DNA of 64,000 bases from positions 1 through 64,000 of the forward strand of contig NZ_JAEFCF010000006.1 in the NCBI RefSeq assembly GCF_016405985.1, given 5' to 3'. The first letter of the stretch is position 1. Each line of letters opens with the position of its first letter. The notes under the pieces are model-generated. The model saw only the letters and a program-made list of their open reading frames with translations. It was not told the DNA's origin and searched no databases. This DNA is from Paracoccus sp. IB05. GTDB taxonomy: Bacteria; Pseudomonadota; Alphaproteobacteria; Rhodobacterales; Rhodobacteraceae. The translations under genes were made by a program, and so were the position numbers. Positions 496-12,460 of the stretch are shown one piece after another.

Positions 496-744
496 TTAGC
501 CCTTCGTGCAGCGCGATGTCTGTCCGGAGCCTGCAAGCGTGCAGATCCAGCTGGCATTGGCCCGGGCCATGTCCAATATCGTCAGCACCGGGTCCGGCGC
601 GCCGGGCTTTGGCCGGGGCCATGTATCGGCGGCATTTGCCAGCCAGTCGAAATCCGCAGCCCCTACGGCTGTCTGTTCGGCATGGGCGGGGGTGGTCAGC
701 GGCAGCAGGAAAGCAAGAAGCAGAGGTCGCAAGGGGTCGTTCAC
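496..744 (-). CDS. Small secreted protein with C-terminal Cys motif (paralogue of 7549-7809)
   Basis: This is an 82-codon gene with a hydrophobic N-terminus (LRPLLLAFLLPLTTPAHA) that looks like a cleavable Sec signal peptide ending AHA. The mature part is about 60 residues and ends ANASWICTLAGSGQTSRC plus TKG. The same ending pattern (ASW-x-C-x-x-AG-x-G-x-x-SRC) is found in the small secreted protein at 7549-7809, on the other side of the exopolysaccharide locus. I used the GTG at 744. A TTG at 732 preceded by AAGGTGA is an equally good start. A longer in-frame ATG at 960 adds a region that looks non-coding. Two cysteines in the last 15 residues could form a disulfide in the periplasm. The function is unknown. 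Confidence 0.55.
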   Translation of the reverse strand: MNDPLRPLLLAFLLPLTTPAHAEQTAVGAADFDWLANAADTWPRPKPGAPDPVLTILDMARANASWICTLAGSGQTSRCTKG

Positions 745-1112
745 CTTTTCAGAAATCGCCAGGAGCGGGCATTCCGGCACCCGCCGTCGCAGCGGGGCGG
801 TCGCGCACCGGCAAGCCATGCCGTGCATTGGGGCAGCCGGAACAGTGGGCAGACCGGAATTTGCGGCCCGCGCCATCCCGAGATACGTCAGACGGGCCGG
901 GCCGACAGTCCAGCGGGACAGCTGCCATATCGGGTTGCGCATCACTACGCGGGATACCACCGTTTGTGCAATCTGCCGTTTCGGCCGCAGGCGGGCGAGT
1001 GGCGGAAATCCGCAGGCGCGGTCCTTTCACAGCGGCCTGACAGGGGCCTTGGCAGAATCACCGCTTTCTACGATCCTGAAATCCGGCCTGACATTTTCTT
1101 GATGAGAGGAAA
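745..1112. other. Intergenic region, no gene seen
   Basis: Open frames exist on both strands here, but none has a family signature, signal peptide or plausible ribosome site. The segment presumably holds divergent promoters for the small secreted protein and the Sel1-repeat gene. No promoter could be assigned with confidence. The 289 bases between the transposase fragment and position 496 are likewise empty. Confidence 0.4.
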
Positions 1113-2213
1113 ATGATGATGCGTCGCGATTCCATCTTCCGTTCTGTTCGTCTGCTGCTGCTGGCCCTGTTCGCGGACACGGCCTTGCCGGCCGGCCTGA
1201 TGGCCGAGACGCCACCTGCCGCCGATGATCTGATCCGGCAGGGGCTGGCGCTTGCCTACAGCACCCCCGTGGCGGGCGAAGATACCCGGCGCGGCATCGC
1301 GCTGCTGGAAAAATCCGCCGCCACAGGCAGCGCCAGGGCAGAGGTCGAACTGGGCAGCCTGTATCTTTACGGCGACGTTGTCCCCCGCGACTTGCGTCGT
1401 GCGCGCGGGTATTTTGAAACCGCCGCCGCAGCGGGCGACTGGTCCGGTCTTGCACAATTTGGGGCAATGCTGATGTGGCGCGAACAGGATTGGCAGGAAG
1501 GCCAGCGGCTACTGGAACAGGCGGCGGAACAAGGGATGGCCTCGGCCTGGGTCACCTTGGCCAGGGGCGCGATGTATGGCTATCTTGGCGGTGGCAGCAC
1601 ATCCCGGGCGAAATACCGCGCCTATGCCGACAAGGCCGAAGCCGCCGGCGCACCGGGGATGGCCGTGCTGGAGGCTGAGCGTCTGCAATGGGGCATTTCG
1701 GTCCGGGCGGATGGCACCGAGGCGGTCAAGGTGTTGCGCCGGGCCGCCGATGCGGGTGATGCCGATGCGGCACGCGCGCTGATCATCCTGCTGCGCGATG
1801 GCAATGGTCTGAACATCGGCAAGGACCGCGACGCAGCGCGGGCGGCCCTGTCAGCCTATGCTCCTCTGCTGACCGAGCCGGATCGGTGGCAGCTCGACAT
1901 CAGCATTCAGGCCGCCGAGGCCCGGGGTACGGCGGATTACGCAGCGCTGGCCAGCGCAGTCGCCACGCATCATGATTGGGTGACGAAGGATCTGGGCAAC
2001 CAATTGGCGCGCGCAAACCCAAATGCGCTGATCTATCTGCTGCAAACGCGGCTGGTCACGGCGGGACACGCGCCGGGCAGGCCTGACGGCTTTGCCGGTC
2101 ACAAGACACTGGCGGCAATGAATGACGCATGTCCAAAGGTGGCAGCCGCCGCTCTGTGCCGTGACAGCGTGCTGCGCCCCGATGTGATGGCCGCATTGCT
2201 GACCCTCCACTAG
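1113..2213 (+). CDS. Secreted Sel1-repeat (TPR-like) protein
   Basis: This 366-residue protein has an N-terminal signal peptide (residues about 10-31, ending GLMAE). It is followed by repeated helix pairs of the Sel1 type: GIALLEKSAATGSARAEVEL, YFETAAAAGDWSGLAQFG, LLEQAAEQGMASAWVTLA and LRRAADAGDADAARALI. Sel1/TPR proteins serve as periplasmic scaffolds, and in alginate and Pel systems (AlgK, PelE) such proteins organise the polymer export complex. Its position directly upstream of a glycosyltransferase/hydrolase locus suggests a similar scaffold role, which is inference. The ATG at 1113 has GAGAGGAAA just upstream. A terminator hairpin follows the gene, so it may be transcribed separately from the downstream cluster. 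Confidence 0.8.
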   Translation: MMMRRDSIFRSVRLLLLALFADTALPAGLMAETPPAADDLIRQGLALAYSTPVAGEDTRRGIALLEKSAATGSARAEVELGSLYLYGDVVPRDLRRARGYFETAAAAGDWSGLAQFGAMLMWREQDWQEGQRLLEQAAEQGMASAWVTLARGAMYGYLGGGSTSRAKYRAYADKAEAAGAPGMAVLEAERLQWGISVRADGTEAVKVLRRAADAGDADAARALIILLRDGNGLNIGKDRDAARAALSAYAPLLTEPDRWQLDISIQAAEARGTADYAALASAVATHHDWVTKDLGNQLARANPNALIYLLQTRLVTAGHAPGRPDGFAGHKTLAAMNDACPKVAAAALCRDSVLRPDVMAALLTLH

Positions 2214-2241
2214 CCGCTGATGCCGATTTAGAATTGCCCAG

Positions 2242-2280
2242 GCGGCCCGGTCGATCCTTCGGCCGGGCCGCTGTCATTTC
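2242..2280 (+). terminator. Rho-independent-like terminator after the Sel1 gene
   Basis: A 9-bp perfect stem (GCGGCCCGG at 2242-2250 pairing with CCGGGCCGC at 2263-2271) encloses a 12-base loop. Only a weak T-rich tail follows. It lies 28 bases after the stop codon. Confidence 0.6.
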
Positions 2281-2313
2281 CCATCGCGAAGCTTCCGAGC
2301 CGAATCGGCCAGG

Positions 2314-2333
2314 TTTTTTTCATTTGAAAAAAG
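2314..2333. promoter_or_regulatory. AT-rich palindrome upstream of the sugar-nucleotide genes
   Basis: TTTTTTCA and TGAAAAAA form a perfect 8-bp inverted repeat around a 2-base centre, in a strongly GC-rich background. It lies about 300 bases before the next gene, in the 2281-2629 intergenic region, where nothing else is recognisable. It could be a regulator site or part of a promoter. No regulator can be named. Confidence 0.3.
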
Positions 2334-2629
2334 GCAAGCAAATTCACCCGTGGGTTGCAATTCTCGCGGCAAGATCCCGAAGATGCACCGAATAGCTGCG
2401 GCGAATGGCATATTGTGCCCAAACGAAGGCAAAATGTGACGATTTCTTGACATTTCGGGGGCGCAGCGCGATCCTGGCGACATACGTTGTATCGAGAGCA
2501 TTTTGCCTGATCGCGACACGGACCTTTCCTGCCACGCCCAGGCGCAGAAGCTCCTCCACCTTAGAAGCAAGCACCAGCAATGATCACAGCGGATGATGCA
2601 GCGGCATCATCCCATCGGGATATAAGCCA

Positions 2630-3646
2630 ATGCAGCCTTTTGATTACAGGTCGGCAGCCCCTTCGGGTTTGCCCGGCAGCGGAAAAGTTGTGCTTGTCGC
2701 AGGCGGAGCCGGATTCCTCGGATCGGCGCTGTGTGGGCGTCTTCTGGATGAAGGAAACAGGGTCATCTGCGTCGACAACCTGCTGTCGGGCGATCTGTCC
2801 AATATCGCCGATTACATGCAGCATCCGCGGATCTGCTTTGTCTTGCAGGACATCATCAACCCGCTGACCATCGCTGGTCCGGTGGATGAAATCTACAACA
2901 TGGCCTGCCCGGCCTCGCCGCCGCGGTATCAGCGCGATCCCATTCATACGATCCGCACCTGCTTTGAGGGGTCGATGACTCTTCTGCGCCTGGCGGCGGA
3001 GAAGGGCGCGCGGATCCTGCTGTCTTCGACCTCGGAAATCTATGGCGATCCCGAGATCACCCTGCAGCATGAGCGCTATCGGGGCAATGTGAACACGGTC
3101 GGCCCCCGCGCCTGTTATGACGAAGGCAAGCGGGCGGCGGAAACCCTGTTCTGGGAATACGGTGCCCATCTGGGGGCAGAAACCCGCATCGCGCGCATCT
3201 TCAACACCTATGGTCCGCGCATGCATCCCGATGATGGCCGGGTGGTGTCGAATTTCGTGGTGCAGGCGCTGCGGGGACAGCCGCTGACAATTTATGGTGA
3301 CGGGGCGCAGACCCGCAGCTTCTGCTATGTCGATGACATGGTCGACGGGCTGATGCGACTGATGGCCAGCGATGAGAAGATGCCCGTCAATCTGGGCAAC
3401 CCGGGCGAATTCACGATGCTGGAACTGGCGCAAACCGTGCGCGATGCCCTTGGAAAGCCCGTTGAAATCACCTTCCGACCGCTGCCGCAGGATGATCCGC
3501 GCCAGCGTTGCCCGGATATTGCGCGCGCGCGCGATCTGCTGGGCTGGGCGCCGAAAATGTCGCTGGCACAGGGGCTGAAGCCGACAATCGGCTGGTTCAC
3601 CGCCCGGGTGCAGGCCGAGCTGCGCGAAACGACCATGGTGTGCTGA
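2630..3646 (+). CDS. UDP-glucuronate decarboxylase-like NAD-dependent epimerase/dehydratase
   Basis: This is a 338-residue extended-SDR enzyme. The NAD-binding GGAGFLGS motif lies at about 25-32, the catalytic SSTSE at 132-136 and the Tyr-x3-Lys pair at Y163/K167 (CYDEGKRAAE). The blocks ACPASPPRYQ, STSEIYGDP and GPRACYDEGKR are typical of UDP-xylose synthases (UXS), which oxidise and decarboxylate UDP-glucuronate to UDP-xylose. A dTDP-glucose dehydratase-like role is less likely. The stop codon lies one base before the galE start, so the two are probably co-transcribed and supply activated sugars to the downstream GT2 synthase. The ribosome site before the ATG is weak. Confidence 0.85.
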   Translation: MQPFDYRSAAPSGLPGSGKVVLVAGGAGFLGSALCGRLLDEGNRVICVDNLLSGDLSNIADYMQHPRICFVLQDIINPLTIAGPVDEIYNMACPASPPRYQRDPIHTIRTCFEGSMTLLRLAAEKGARILLSSTSEIYGDPEITLQHERYRGNVNTVGPRACYDEGKRAAETLFWEYGAHLGAETRIARIFNTYGPRMHPDDGRVVSNFVVQALRGQPLTIYGDGAQTRSFCYVDDMVDGLMRLMASDEKMPVNLGNPGEFTMLELAQTVRDALGKPVEITFRPLPQDDPRQRCPDIARARDLLGWAPKMSLAQGLKPTIGWFTARVQAELRETTMVC

Positions 3647-3647
3647 C

Positions 3648-4636
<989 letters not shown>

Positions 4637-4640
<4 letters not shown>

Positions 4641-6499
4641 CCGACCGCCCGGCACGTCCGCCCTATGTCTCGCCCCGCCGTGACCGCGCGCCTGTGACAG
4701 TGCCGCAGGGGCGCAACGGGTTTGCCGTTTCCCTGTTCTCGCGGCGGCAGCGGGTGATCTATCTCACGCTTTGCCTGCTATGGGCGCTGGCGGTGGCCTG
4801 GTTCTGGATCTGGTGGCTGGACCCGGCGCATTTCGTGGGCTGGGTGCCCTTCCTGTTTGCCACCATTCCGCTGCTGTGGATCCAGTGGTTGCAGGTGTTT
4901 TTCGTGGTGGTCTTGCTGATGGCGGCGCGCTCTGCCGCGCCGGACCCGCAGCCCGGACAGTGGCGGGTGGCGATGATCGTGACCAAGACCCCGTCCGAAC
5001 CCTTCTGCATCCTGCGCCGGACGCTGGAGGCCATGCTGGCGCAGGATTACCCGCATCACACCTGGCTGGCGGATGAAGACCCCTCGCCCGAAACCCGCGC
5101 CTGGTGTGCGGCGCATGGCGTCCACATCTCGACCCGAAAGGGGTTTCCTGCCTATCATCAACCCGTCTGGCCGCGCCGCACCCGCTGCAAAGAGGGCAAC
5201 CTGGCGTTTTTCTACGACCATTGGGGCTATGACAACTACGATATCGTGGCGCAGCTCGATGCCGATCATGTGCCGCAGCCCGGCTATTTGCGCGAAATGG
5301 TCCGCCCCTTTGCCGATCCGCAGGTGGGCTATGTCAGTGCGCCGTCGATCTGTGCGGCCAATGCCACCGAAAGCTGGGCCGCGCGAACCCGCCTGCATAC
5401 CGAGGCGGCGTTTCACGGGCTGTTCCAGATGGGCTATACCCGCCTGTTCACGCCGATGTGCATCGGATCACATTACGCGGTGCGCACCCGGGCGCTCCGG
5501 CAGGTCGGTGGTCTGGGCCCCGAACTGGCCGAAGATCATTCAACCACCATGCTGCTGAGCGCGGGCGGCTGGCGCGGGGTGCATGCCATCGACGCTATCG
5601 CCATCGGCGATGGTCCGGCCAGCGTGACCGATCTGGTCACGCAGGAGTTCCAGTGGTCGCGCAGCCTGCTGTCGCTGCTGCTGCAACATAGCGGGCGATA
5701 CCTGCCGAAACTGTCGCCGCGGCTGCGCTTTCTGTTCGTGTTCTGCCAGCTCTGGTATCCGCTGTTCGCGCTGACCGCGCTGATGATGTATCTGGCCCCG
5801 ATGGTCGCGCTGGCCTTTGACATGCGCTTTGCCAATGTGACCTATCCCGGCTTTCTGCTGCATGCGGTTCCGCCGGTCATTGTGCTGTTGCTGATCGCTC
5901 TCCGCATCCGCCATGACGGGTTCTTCCGTCCGGTCGATGCGCCCGTGATCAGCTGGGAGAAGGCACTGTTCCTTGCGATGCAGTGGCCCTGGGCATTGTG
6001 GGGCTGCGCCATGGCGGTCCGCGACCGGCTGACCGGCAGTTTCGTCGATTTCCGCATCACGCCGAAGGGGGAGGCCGCGGCGCGGACTCTGCCCCTGAAG
6101 GTGCTGGCGGTCTATACGCTGCTCGCGCTTGGGGCCACGCTGCCGGTGTTGTTCAGCGCCGAGCTGGCCAATGCGCGCGGCTTTCTGCTGCTCGCGCTGC
6201 TGAACGCGGCGCTTTACACCGCATTGGTCGTGGTCATCGTCTGGCACCATCTGCGCGAGACGGGCGCGATCCGCCATCAATCCGGCCTGTCCACGCTGGG
6301 CCAGACCGCCGCTGCAGGCGTCGTGCTGGCCACAGTTGCCCTTGGGTTCAGCTGGCGCGGCGTGGAAAGCATGCATGCGCTGGCCTTCGGATTGGAACCG
6401 CTGCGTCTGGTTCGCGCCGAATACGGCATCGCGGGCGCCGGCTATGGTGCCAATGACCGTATCTACTTCATCTGGGATCCCGGCTGGATCACCCGATGA
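4637..6499 (+). CDS. Membrane family 2 glycosyltransferase (cellulose synthase-like)
   Basis: This 620-residue processive-type GT2 has two N-terminal membrane helices (about 41-60 and 70-96), then the catalytic domain with ADED (about 145-148), the UDP/metal-binding DAD at 208-210, ED at 299-300 and a QEFQW block (336-340) at the place of the Q-x-x-RW motif. Several C-terminal membrane helices follow. This layout matches cellulose synthase BcsA-like enzymes that polymerise and export a beta-glycan. There is no visible PilZ domain. The true start is the ATG overlapping the galE stop; a longer in-frame extension only reads through galE in another frame. The polymer is unknown, but the adjacent GH26 enzyme suggests a beta-1,4-linked or mixed-linkage backbone. 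Confidence 0.88.
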
Positions 6500-6525
6500 A
6501 AATCAAGGGGAAAGGAGAAAGACCC

Positions 6526-7422
6526 ATGTCACTGATCCGCACATACGCCCCTCGCGCCGCCCTCATGGCCTCGGCCCTGTTCGTGGCTCCGGTGGCCTTT
6601 GCCGCGCCACCGGGCACATTGCCCTTCGGCGCCTATGACCCCGAGGGCTATTTCGCCTCGGACAGCGAACTCACGGTCGAGCATGTCTTCATGCCATGGG
6701 AAGACGTCAACCTCGCCTCCCTGCTGGAGGCGGATGCCTATGCGCTGGAACGCAAGCGCGCGCTGATGATCACGGTCGAGCCATGGACCTGGACCCGCGA
6801 TGAACGCAATACCGCCGACTTCCTGCTGAATGGCATTCGGCAGGGCTATTACGATGCGAATATGAAGGCGGTCTGCGGCGTGATCGGTCAGCTGCAAAGC
6901 CCGGTCTCGGTCCGCTGGGCGCATGAGATGGAAACCGATGACGGACAGTTCATCTGGTCGGCCTGGCGACCCGAGGATTACATCGCTTCGTTCCGGCGGA
7001 TGACCGAGATCTGCCGGGCGGAGGCCCCCAGGATCAACATGGTCTGGTCGCCGGTCGGGCTGCTGAATGCCAGCGACTACTATCCGGGCGATGATGTCGT
7101 CGATCTGATCGGATTGTCGATCTTTGGTTACGAGCCCTGGGACCGGGCGATCCTGGGCCGGGCGCAGGACTACCCGAGCCTGCTGACCGAACGCTATAAT
7201 GAGGTAAAGGGGTTCAACAAGCCCGTGGTGGTCGCCGAGGTCGGCTATTCCGGCAGCGAAACCTATGTCGCCGCCTGGGAGGAAAAGGTGCGCGAAGCAC
7301 GGCCTGATCTGCCGCTGCTGGTGGGTGCGCTGTATTTCAACCAGAAAGAGGTCTATCCGTGGCCCGATGGCTTTGGGATGCCTGACTGGAGGGTCGAACA
7401 CCGTATCCTGCCCTCGAATTGA
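6526..7422 (+). CDS. Secreted glycoside hydrolase family 26 (beta-mannanase-like)
   Basis: This 298-residue protein has a signal peptide (about 1-27, ending AFAA). The conserved RWAHEME block contains the predicted acid/base Glu134, and VVVAEVGYSG contains the predicted nucleophile Glu238, as in GH26. Known GH26 members cut beta-1,4-mannan, beta-1,3-xylan or mixed-linkage beta-glucan. I chose the ATG at 6526 because AAGGAG lies 8 bases upstream; an earlier ATG at 6496 overlaps the glycosyltransferase stop but lacks a ribosome site. Placed directly behind a BcsA-like synthase, it is probably the polymer-trimming hydrolase of the system, in the position that BcsZ (GH8) occupies in cellulose operons. 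That role is inferred. Confidence 0.83.
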   Translation: MSLIRTYAPRAALMASALFVAPVAFAAPPGTLPFGAYDPEGYFASDSELTVEHVFMPWEDVNLASLLEADAYALERKRALMITVEPWTWTRDERNTADFLLNGIRQGYYDANMKAVCGVIGQLQSPVSVRWAHEMETDDGQFIWSAWRPEDYIASFRRMTEICRAEAPRINMVWSPVGLLNASDYYPGDDVVDLIGLSIFGYEPWDRAILGRAQDYPSLLTERYNEVKGFNKPVVVAEVGYSGSETYVAAWEEKVREARPDLPLLVGALYFNQKEVYPWPDGFGMPDWRVEHRILPSN

Positions 7423-7548
7423 CCGCATGACAGGGCATTGCCCCGGAATGACCTTATTCCTTGCGGAATCTCGCCGGATTAAGCGCGGCTAACTCGCTTT
7501 TTACGATCTGGACCTATCCAGAATTCGAAAACAGCGGGTTTACGCATC

Positions 7549-7809
7549 ATGACGACGCGATATGCGGCCCTTGTCGCCGTAACAGTCATCCTCTGCCCGC
7601 CGGGTATGGCGGATGCAACGCAGATCGATGATCCCAGGCCGGCAACCGGTTTCAGCTGGATGGTGAACGGCGCACAGGCCGGGTCGGCCGAGATCCGGCA
7701 GCAGCGCGCGAAAGAGGCGCTGATCCGCGCCAAGGCGCTGAACAGCGGGGCCAGCTGGGTCTGCTCGCCCGCAGGCTTTGGCAAGGCCTCGCGTTGCCAT
7801 CGCGGGTGA
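7549..7809 (+). CDS. Small secreted protein with C-terminal Cys motif (paralogue of 496-744)
   Basis: This 86-residue protein has a signal peptide of about 20 residues (AALVAVTVILCPPGMADA). The mature segment ends LNSGASWVCSPAGFGKAS followed by RCHRG. The last 20 residues match the C-terminus of the secreted protein at 496-744 (ASW-x-C, AG-x-G, SRC). The gene follows the GH26 gene by 126 bases on the same strand. The pair brackets the exopolysaccharide cluster. No known domain is recognised. The two spaced cysteines suggest a disulfide-closed loop outside the cytoplasm. Confidence 0.65.
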   Translation: MTTRYAALVAVTVILCPPGMADATQIDDPRPATGFSWMVNGAQAGSAEIRQQRAKEALIRAKALNSGASWVCSPAGFGKASRCHRG

Positions 7810-11085: not shown

Positions 11086-11235
11086 GACGAGGAGGGCCGC
11101 CTGGGGGGATACGGCCGCAGCTCGTAATGATTGCTACGGGGCGGACGAACGCCCGCCAATGGGATATGCCGGCTGCTTCCCCGACCGTTGGGTTATCCTG
11201 AACCGGGATCAACCGCGCCACAAGGAGAAGCCGCC

Positions 11236-12460
<1,225 letters not shown>

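What the first reader, a model, noticed from the sequence alone, without database searches (positions are those of the whole stretch)
496..7809. Compact exopolysaccharide locus with GT2 synthase and GH26 hydrolase instead of the BcsA/GH8 pair
Seen: Sel1-repeat scaffold candidate, UXS-like enzyme, galE, a BcsA-like GT2 (two N-terminal and several C-terminal membrane helices, DAD, ED and QEFQW motifs, no PilZ) and a signal-peptide-bearing GH26 enzyme with predicted Glu134/Glu238. galE and GT2 overlap by ATGA. Established: synthase operons usually carry a polymer-trimming hydrolase (BcsZ, GH8, for cellulose); GH26 acts on beta-1,4-mannan, beta-1,3-xylan or mixed-linkage glucan. Inference: the polymer is not cellulose, and the UDP-xylose/UDP-galactose enzymes may add side residues. 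This is the best candidate here for an undescribed system.
Basis: partly seen in the sequence, partly recalled or inferred. Interest (0 to 1): 0.7.

Follow-up and report, generated by a model that had tools for sequence, protein, structure and literature searches.

The report
Arabinose polysaccharide operon in Rhodobacterales
The gene cluster is a close relative of a bacterial sugar-polymer operon already described in root-nodule bacteria (the arabinose-containing polysaccharide operon), not an undescribed system, but the comparison shows a small secreted protein that nearly always travels with it and has no family name yet.

Summary
The genes are there as described: UXS, a galE-like epimerase, a BcsA-like GT2 without PilZ, and a GH26 with both catalytic glutamates, tightly packed. 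They match the core uxs-uxe-apsS-apsE of the Sinorhizobium meliloti arabinose-containing polysaccharide (APS) operon: 57-59% identity for uxs/uxe, 54% for the GT2 over 97%, 44% for the GH26, same order. The GT2 groups with ApsS, apart from BcsA and BgsA. The galE-like gene is best read as a UDP-xylose 4-epimerase making UDP-arabinose, likely the main precursor. GH26 is kept in 78 of 80 related loci (the other two contigs end before it). These loci, mostly Rhodobacterales, lack CuxR (0 of 80) and mostly DUF995 (9 of 80 have it). New: a small exported protein with a C-terminal W-[IV]-C-S-P-[AS]-G-F-G...C motif sits just behind GH26 in 73 of 80 loci and, at E below 1e-8, occurs in 13 of 14 family genomes with the GT2 and 0 of 135 without. 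It also lies beside most rhizobial APS operons examined. No Pfam or NCBIfam model matches. The window has two copies, flanking the cluster. Product and hydrolase substrate are untested.

The parts
496..744 (-). small exported protein, second copy (82 aa from a GTG start, hydrophobic N-terminus by eye, C-terminus ASWICTLAGSGQTSRCTKG)
   Evidence: paralogue of 7549-7809: one of only two matches in the own genome; GTG at 744 seen but other starts are open upstream
1113..2213 (+). Sel1-repeat protein; optional neighbour, not core
   Evidence: Pfam Sel1; homologue within the flanks of 19 of 80 related loci
2630..3646 (+). uxs: UDP-glucuronate decarboxylase (UDP-xylose synthase)
   Evidence: E 1.5e-102 to human UXS1; 57.5% identity to the S. 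meliloti uxs1 product
3648..4640 (+). uxe: galE-like epimerase, read as UDP-xylose 4-epimerase
   Evidence: TIGR01179 395 bits; 58-59% to S. meliloti Uxe, 51% to ExoB; a separate galE lies elsewhere in the genome
4637..6499 (+). apsS: membrane GT2 polysaccharide synthase, no PilZ; DADH, AEDH, QEFQW and gating-loop-like FRITPKG
   Evidence: 54% to S. meliloti ApsS over 97%; tree; model pLDDT 88.6, best matches BcsA
6496..7422 (+). apsE: exported GH26 glycoside hydrolase, Glu144 and Glu248; alternative start 6526
   Evidence: Pfam GH26; model pLDDT 90.3, closest CtLic26A lichenase Z 25.5, rmsd 2.6, 242 aligned
7549..7809 (+). small exported protein (86 aa) with C-terminal GASWVCSPAGFGKASRCHRG; conserved partner of the operon
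   Evidence: profile hits just behind GH26 in 73 of 80 loci; co-occurrence in 149 genomes; no Pfam/NCBIfam match

Best explanation
This is the Rhodobacterales form of the arabinose-containing polysaccharide (APS) operon. Uxs turns UDP-glucuronate into UDP-xylose; the galE-like Uxe turns UDP-xylose into UDP-L-arabinose; the membrane GT2 (ApsS) polymerises the pentose (alone or with another UDP-sugar) and extrudes it through its own channel, as BcsA does; the exported GH26 (ApsE) cuts the chain outside the membrane, in the place BcsZ holds for cellulose; a small exported protein with a C-terminal two-cysteine motif assists at the surface. Shown here: orthology, order, active-site motifs, predicted fold, co-conservation. 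Inferred: enzyme activities, polymer make-up, the role of the small protein.
For: S. meliloti pSymB carries AraC regulator, UXS, galE, GT2, DUF995, GH26, DUF995 in that order, which fits the published operon name uxs1-uxe-apsS-apsH1-apsE-apsH2 (passages of PMC7902896). Identities to it: uxs 57.5%, uxe 59%, GT2 54%, GH26 44%. The GT2 tree (quick method, SH-aLRT only) puts window and S. meliloti/R. leguminosarum ApsS in one group of 13 (99), with BgsA and BcsA-type rows outside. uxe groups with Uxe rather than with ExoB and the genome's other galE (84/95). Four-gene order in 69 of 75 loci with room. Two UDP-glucose-dehydrogenase-type genes over the family cut-off could supply UDP-glucuronate. 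GH26 fold and catalytic residues intact.
Against: No chemistry was done on any Rhodobacterales polymer. Five of 80 loci lack uxe next to the GT2 (L078, L092, L095, L101, L108), so arabinose may not be the only pentose. The GH26 is nearest in fold to a lichenase, and 16 of 80 loci carry a second, PF11790-type hydrolase, which would also fit a glucan. CuxR and usually DUF995 are missing. The uxe/ExoB split has only moderate support. Rhizobium favelukesii carries APS-like genes yet showed no APS phenotype in the tested conditions, so genes do not prove production.
Confidence: 0.8

Rival explanations
1. A mixed-linkage or other beta-glucan operon: the GT2 uses UDP-glucose, the lichenase-like GH26 trims it, and Uxs/Uxe only decorate the chain with pentose.
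For: Closest fold of the GH26 is CtLic26A lichenase (Z 25.5, against 20.2 for the next distinct enzyme); PF11790-type hydrolase near 16 of 80 loci; one GT only, so a glucan backbone needs no pentose-using polymerase.
Against: GT2 is outside the BgsA and BcsA groups. No second glycosyltransferase shows among neighbour families found in 6 or more of the 80 loci: these are Sel1, PF11790, DUF995, an ABC ATPase and two antisense readings without a Pfam match (ORFs under 100 aa and ORFs hidden under longer ones were not seen). uxs is next to uxe or the GT2 in 76 of the 78 loci with room upstream, so pentose supply is nearly as fixed as the synthase. The S. meliloti relative is reported to make an arabinose-containing polymer.
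Confidence: 0.12
2. A xylose polymer: UDP-xylose from Uxs is the direct substrate and Uxe is optional or feeds other glycans.
For: uxe is absent beside the GT2 in 5 of 80 loci while uxs, GT2 and GH26 stay; GH26 includes beta-1,3-xylanase and mixed-linkage xylanase relatives.
Against: uxe is present in 73 of 80 loci, between uxs and GT2; all 5 genomes without it keep other galE-like genes that could do the step.
Confidence: 0.1
3. A cellulose operon with a swapped hydrolase.
For: GT2 folds like BcsA (best Z 26.1, rmsd 3.6, 485 aligned).
Against: 50 bits against a 699-bit cut-off for BcsA, no PilZ, no BcsB/BcsC-like family among neighbours in 6 or more of 80 loci (with the limits above), genuine BcsA elsewhere in the genome.
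Confidence: 0.02

Closest known systems
[quoted passage not shown]
   Same: uxs, uxe, GT2 and GH26 in the same order and orthologous; a small protein with a like C-terminal motif lies beside it
   Different: No CuxR and no DUF995 hit at the window locus; two copies of the small protein, with a plain hydrophobic N-terminus instead of a lipobox-like one (by eye); GH26 directly overlaps the GT2
S. meliloti bgsA-bgsB (mixed-linkage beta-glucan)
   Same: GT2 synthase without PilZ
   Different: Different GT2 group; the locus read as bgs by its context has a periplasmic adaptor partner and no uxs, galE or GH26 annotated beside it
Bacterial cellulose operon bcsABZC
   Same: Synthase fold and synthase-plus-hydrolase logic
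   Different: No PilZ, GH26 instead of GH8, pentose-nucleotide enzymes; far below the BcsA model cut-off
CtLic26A lichenase and other GH26 enzymes
   Same: Fold and catalytic glutamates
   Different: About 23% identity; substrate unknown

Membership tests
APS operon | GT2 orthologous to ApsS | tested here: met
   54% over 97%; one group with S. meliloti and R. leguminosarum ApsS, SH-aLRT 99 in a quick tree
APS operon | uxs and uxe upstream of the GT2 | tested here: met
APS operon | GH26 (ApsE) downstream | tested here: met
APS operon | DUF995 proteins ApsH1/ApsH2 | tested here: not met
   no hit at the window locus; at least one in 9 of 80 related loci; R. leguminosarum L035 is annotated with one only. 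I treat it as variable, not defining
APS operon | CuxR regulator beside the operon | tested here: not met
   0 of 80 loci at E 1e-4; own genome has only weak matches, best 24% identity, E 2.3e-15. A regulatory, not a biosynthetic, feature
APS operon | product contains arabinose | not testable with these tools
   needs sugar analysis
Cellulose synthase BcsA | TIGR03030 cut-off and PilZ domain | tested here: not met
   50.3 against 699.1 bits; no PilZ
Mixed-linkage glucan synthase BgsA | groups with BgsA | tested here: not met
Glycoside hydrolase family 26 | GH26 profile, fold and two catalytic Glu | tested here: met
   (barely over cut-off)
UDP-xylose synthase | UXS-type sequence with TSE, YxxxK and Arg as in human UXS1 (motif roles recalled) | tested here: met
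   alignment
UDP-xylose 4-epimerase (Uxe) | closer to Uxe than to GalE/ExoB | tested here: met
   58% against 51%; group support 84/95, not starred; activity not tested

The most novel reading that the evidence does not exclude
APS systems of both Rhodobacterales and Hyphomicrobiales need a previously unnamed small exported protein, ending in [WY]-[IV]-C-x-[PA]-x-G-x-G...C, that works only with this synthase: for example as a periplasmic or outer-surface anchor, guide or acceptor for the pentose polymer, possibly docking to the C-terminal tail of ApsS (which may lie outside the membrane; the helix count is uncertain).
Probability: 0.6. Interest if true: 0.55.

Novelty: new variant of a known kind. 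Interest (0 to 1): 0.42.

Why it matters
It moves a supposed unknown to a known pathway and shows that this pathway, described in rhizobia, is spread patchily through the Rhodobacterales (14 of 149 sampled genomes of the window's family), where pentose-rich surface polymers could matter for biofilms and carbon cycling. It gives a testable parts list (four enzymes plus one small protein), a natural contrast (loci with and without uxe) for reading the sugar make-up, and a new small-protein family tied to one synthase.

Tried and rejected
Mixed-linkage glucan (BgsA) and cellulose readings were tested by tree and profile and rejected as membership. A conserved promoter motif upstream of uxs was sought in 78 loci by k-mer counts: some G+C-rich and A-rich words (such as AAATCAA, 21 loci, against at most 12 in one simple shuffle) but nothing I could call a site. 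CuxR was sought in the own genome: weak matches only. Over the class the GT2 was found at E 1e-60 in 1 of 385 genomes, the window's own; most of that sample lies outside the family.

Faults of my own. The first GT2 tree held outgroup ORFs read on the wrong strand and is discarded; one search replaces it, and in it L018 and L019 are very long branches whose place means little. In one search the small downstream ORF was read in the wrong frame (stops written as X); onward uses the right one. The neighbour list was cut in print and mixes sense and antisense ORFs; replace it for the claim about neighbours. Start codons in relatives were chosen by rule.

Limits of the small-protein test. The profile was built from 25 proteins of 24 of the 80 loci plus the two window copies, so those loci match by construction; the family test used the alignment (24 proteins from 23 of these loci plus the window copies), so the own genome matches by construction, some loci may come from genomes in that sample, and only the best 35 first-look candidates per genome were scored. 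Of the 7 loci without a same-strand hit, L095 and L108 have an opposite-strand one, L063, L074, L132 and L135 end at or before the place, and L139 has room but no hit. Fisher p 8e-18 ignores shared descent. The 80 loci are those nearest the window, not a fair sample of the 511 found.
Full report
What is there. One search lists the ORFs. A tight run uxs (2630-3646), galE-like (3648-4640), GT2 (4637-6499), GH26 (6496-7422) is followed by a small ORF (7549-7809). Upstream lie a Sel1-repeat gene (1113-2213) and, on the minus strand, a second small ORF (496-744 from a GTG; longer starts are open). Junctions were read directly: 1 base between uxs and galE-like, ATGA overlaps at the next two.

Identity of the proteins. 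uxs matches human UXS1 at E 1.5e-102. The galE-like protein passes the GalE model (395 against 262 bits). The GT2 has GT2-clan domains and no PilZ; it scores 50 bits against a 699-bit cut-off on the BcsA model. The GH26 is just over the Pfam cut-off, and the HMMER alignment to endoglucanase H (CtLic26A) puts its two catalytic glutamates in register. They are invariant in 64 aligned sequences, window included.

It is the APS operon. A tblastn of the GT2 against plasmids gave matches in 303 of 72,556 records, 109 of them covering 80% or more of the query; 60 of the 303 rows were seen, and the Sinorhizobium meliloti and medicae ones that cover 97% or more match at 52-54%. Around the S. meliloti match lie AraC regulator, UDP-glucuronate decarboxylase, GalE, glycosyltransferase, DUF995, GH26, DUF995. 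[quoted passage not shown] It also reports that Rhizobium favelukesii has APS-like genes but showed no APS phenotype. PMC9495663 (passages) says c-di-GMP acts on APS through CuxR; PMC8546604 (passages) names CuxR as activating APS. Assigning apsH1, apsE and apsH2 to DUF995, GH26 and DUF995 is by gene order. PMC5607165 (passages) cites Gu et al. [quoted passage not shown] meliloti; I did not read that paper. From recall, not from a call: the 2019 Schaper paper describes APS as solely or mainly arabinose and Uxe as also acting on UDP-glucose.

Position of the synthase and epimerase. In the corrected tree of 29 rows (quick method), window GT2, S. meliloti and R. leguminosarum ApsS and other operon GT2s form one group of 13 (99), with BgsA and BcsA-type rows outside. 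BgsA was picked from the same pSymB by its context (GT2 beside a periplasmic adaptor). In the epimerase tree of 16 rows, 14 operon epimerases stand against ExoB (picked by its place at the end of the exo cluster) and the window genome's other galE (84/95, not starred); the window enzyme is 58% identical to Uxe, 51% to ExoB and 51% to the other galE.

Co-conservation. The two misses are L135 (none) and L136 (a 37% identical protein). uxe is present in 73 of 80: five lack it, L135 lacks it too, and L109 has no room. GH26 is present in 78 of 80; L063 and L135 end before its place. All four in order: 69 of 75 loci with room on both sides. CuxR: 0 of 80. DUF995: at least one in 9 of 80. Sel1: 19 of 80. 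PF11790-type hydrolase: 16 of 80 (family). In the 5 genomes without an operon uxe, galE-like genes occur elsewhere: best copies 67-68% identical with an in-frame stop reported in two, 51-53% in three. Other neighbour families in 6 or more of 80 loci, from ORFs of 100 aa and more: Sel1 12, PF11790 10, an ABC ATPase 9, DUF995 7, and two antisense readings without Pfam match; no glycosyltransferase.

Family-wide spread. Among 149 genomes of the family, 14 (own included) have the GT2 at E below 1e-200; 29 more have only weaker matches (E 8e-25 or weaker), not classified one by one. Over the class, 1 of 385 at E 1e-60, the own genome.

Structure. The GH26 model (pLDDT 90.3) is closest to CtLic26A lichenase (Z 25.5, rmsd 2.6, 242 aligned), then the mixed-linkage xylanase AlXyn26A (Z 20.2, rmsd 3.5, 241 aligned) and mannanases from 19.8 down. 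The GT2 model (pLDDT 88.6) is closest to BcsA (Z 26.1, rmsd 3.6, 485 aligned), with a mannosyltransferase PcManGT at 22.9 (rmsd 3.1, 322 aligned) and barley CslF6 at 18.6 (rmsd 4.6, 501 aligned). It has FRITPKG where BcsA has its gating loop FxVTxK (BcsA motif recalled), as F[RKS][IV]TPK in 58 of 58 rows. Whether the C-terminal tail lies outside the membrane depends on an uncertain helix count.

The small protein. The window's 7549-7809 product has one other match in its own genome, the 496-744 product; the two flank the cluster. A profile finds a same-strand match just behind GH26 in 73 of 80 loci, and an opposite-strand match near the operon in two more, L095 and L108 (24 of the 80 loci were used to build it). 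In 149 family genomes it is found at E below 1e-8 in 13, all among the 14 with the GT2; the 14th (G112) has only a weak candidate at the locus (E 0.043, L055); among the 135 others are three weak matches at E 9e-4 to 0.0097, taken as noise. Fisher p 8e-18, uncorrected for descent. An S. meliloti homologue lies about 190 bases from the last DUF995 gene on the other strand. Searching plasmids with it gave 91 records, one place each (40 of 91 rows seen). I opened eleven of the more distant ones (3-9 kb flanks): in ten, APS genes lie in the stretch; the eleventh (L145, Ensifer adhaerens, 6 kb flanks) has none. R. leguminosarum L035 gave no hit. No Pfam or NCBIfam model matches the members scanned, and the motif strings occur in no paper of the library; that is a search for letters only.

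Mechanism. UDP-glucuronate (two dehydrogenase-type genes in the genome over the family cut-off), then UDP-xylose, then UDP-arabinose, then polymerisation and extrusion by ApsS, then cutting by GH26. No outer-membrane exit was found in the cluster. Five GGDEF matches mean c-di-GMP may be made in this cell, but without CuxR how this operon is switched on is unknown.

Verdict. A real and tidy operon, a Rhodobacterales variant of a known kind. The small protein is the part that a specialist may not expect.

Noticed in passing
L078, L092, L095, L101, L108: Operons with uxs directly before the GT2 and no uxe, a natural contrast for the sugar make-up.
   Followed up: partly
L136, about 1.1-1.9 kb before the GT2: The uxs place holds an open SDR-type protein only 37% identical to the window's Uxs and, by eye, without the usual YxxxK stretch.
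   Followed up: no
L033 11486-12289; similar in 16 of 80 loci: Second exported hydrolase of Pfam PF11790 type near the operon in some relatives (in L139 joined to RTX repeats); none was seen at the window locus.
   Followed up: partly
L050, L051, L052 and 11 of 80 loci: About 800-residue membrane protein that looks by eye like an alkaline-phosphatase/sulfatase-type transferase near the operon; not scanned against a library.
   Followed up: no
L143 (S. meliloti SM11 pSmeSM11b): A second set of APS genes whose small-protein gene keeps only its end and lies close to a Tn3-family transposase gene.
   Followed up: no
L016 (G070:C1:1095645-1096040): A 41% identical, 131-residue match to the GT2 with four stops inside, perhaps a decayed copy.
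   Followed up: no
own genome contig C31 near 168647-172147: A true BcsA gene lies about 2 kb from a GGDEF gene, so the organism can probably also make cellulose.
   Followed up: partly
window 11131-12143: Overlapping ORFs that look by eye like pieces of a transposase in broken frames; not scanned.
   Followed up: no
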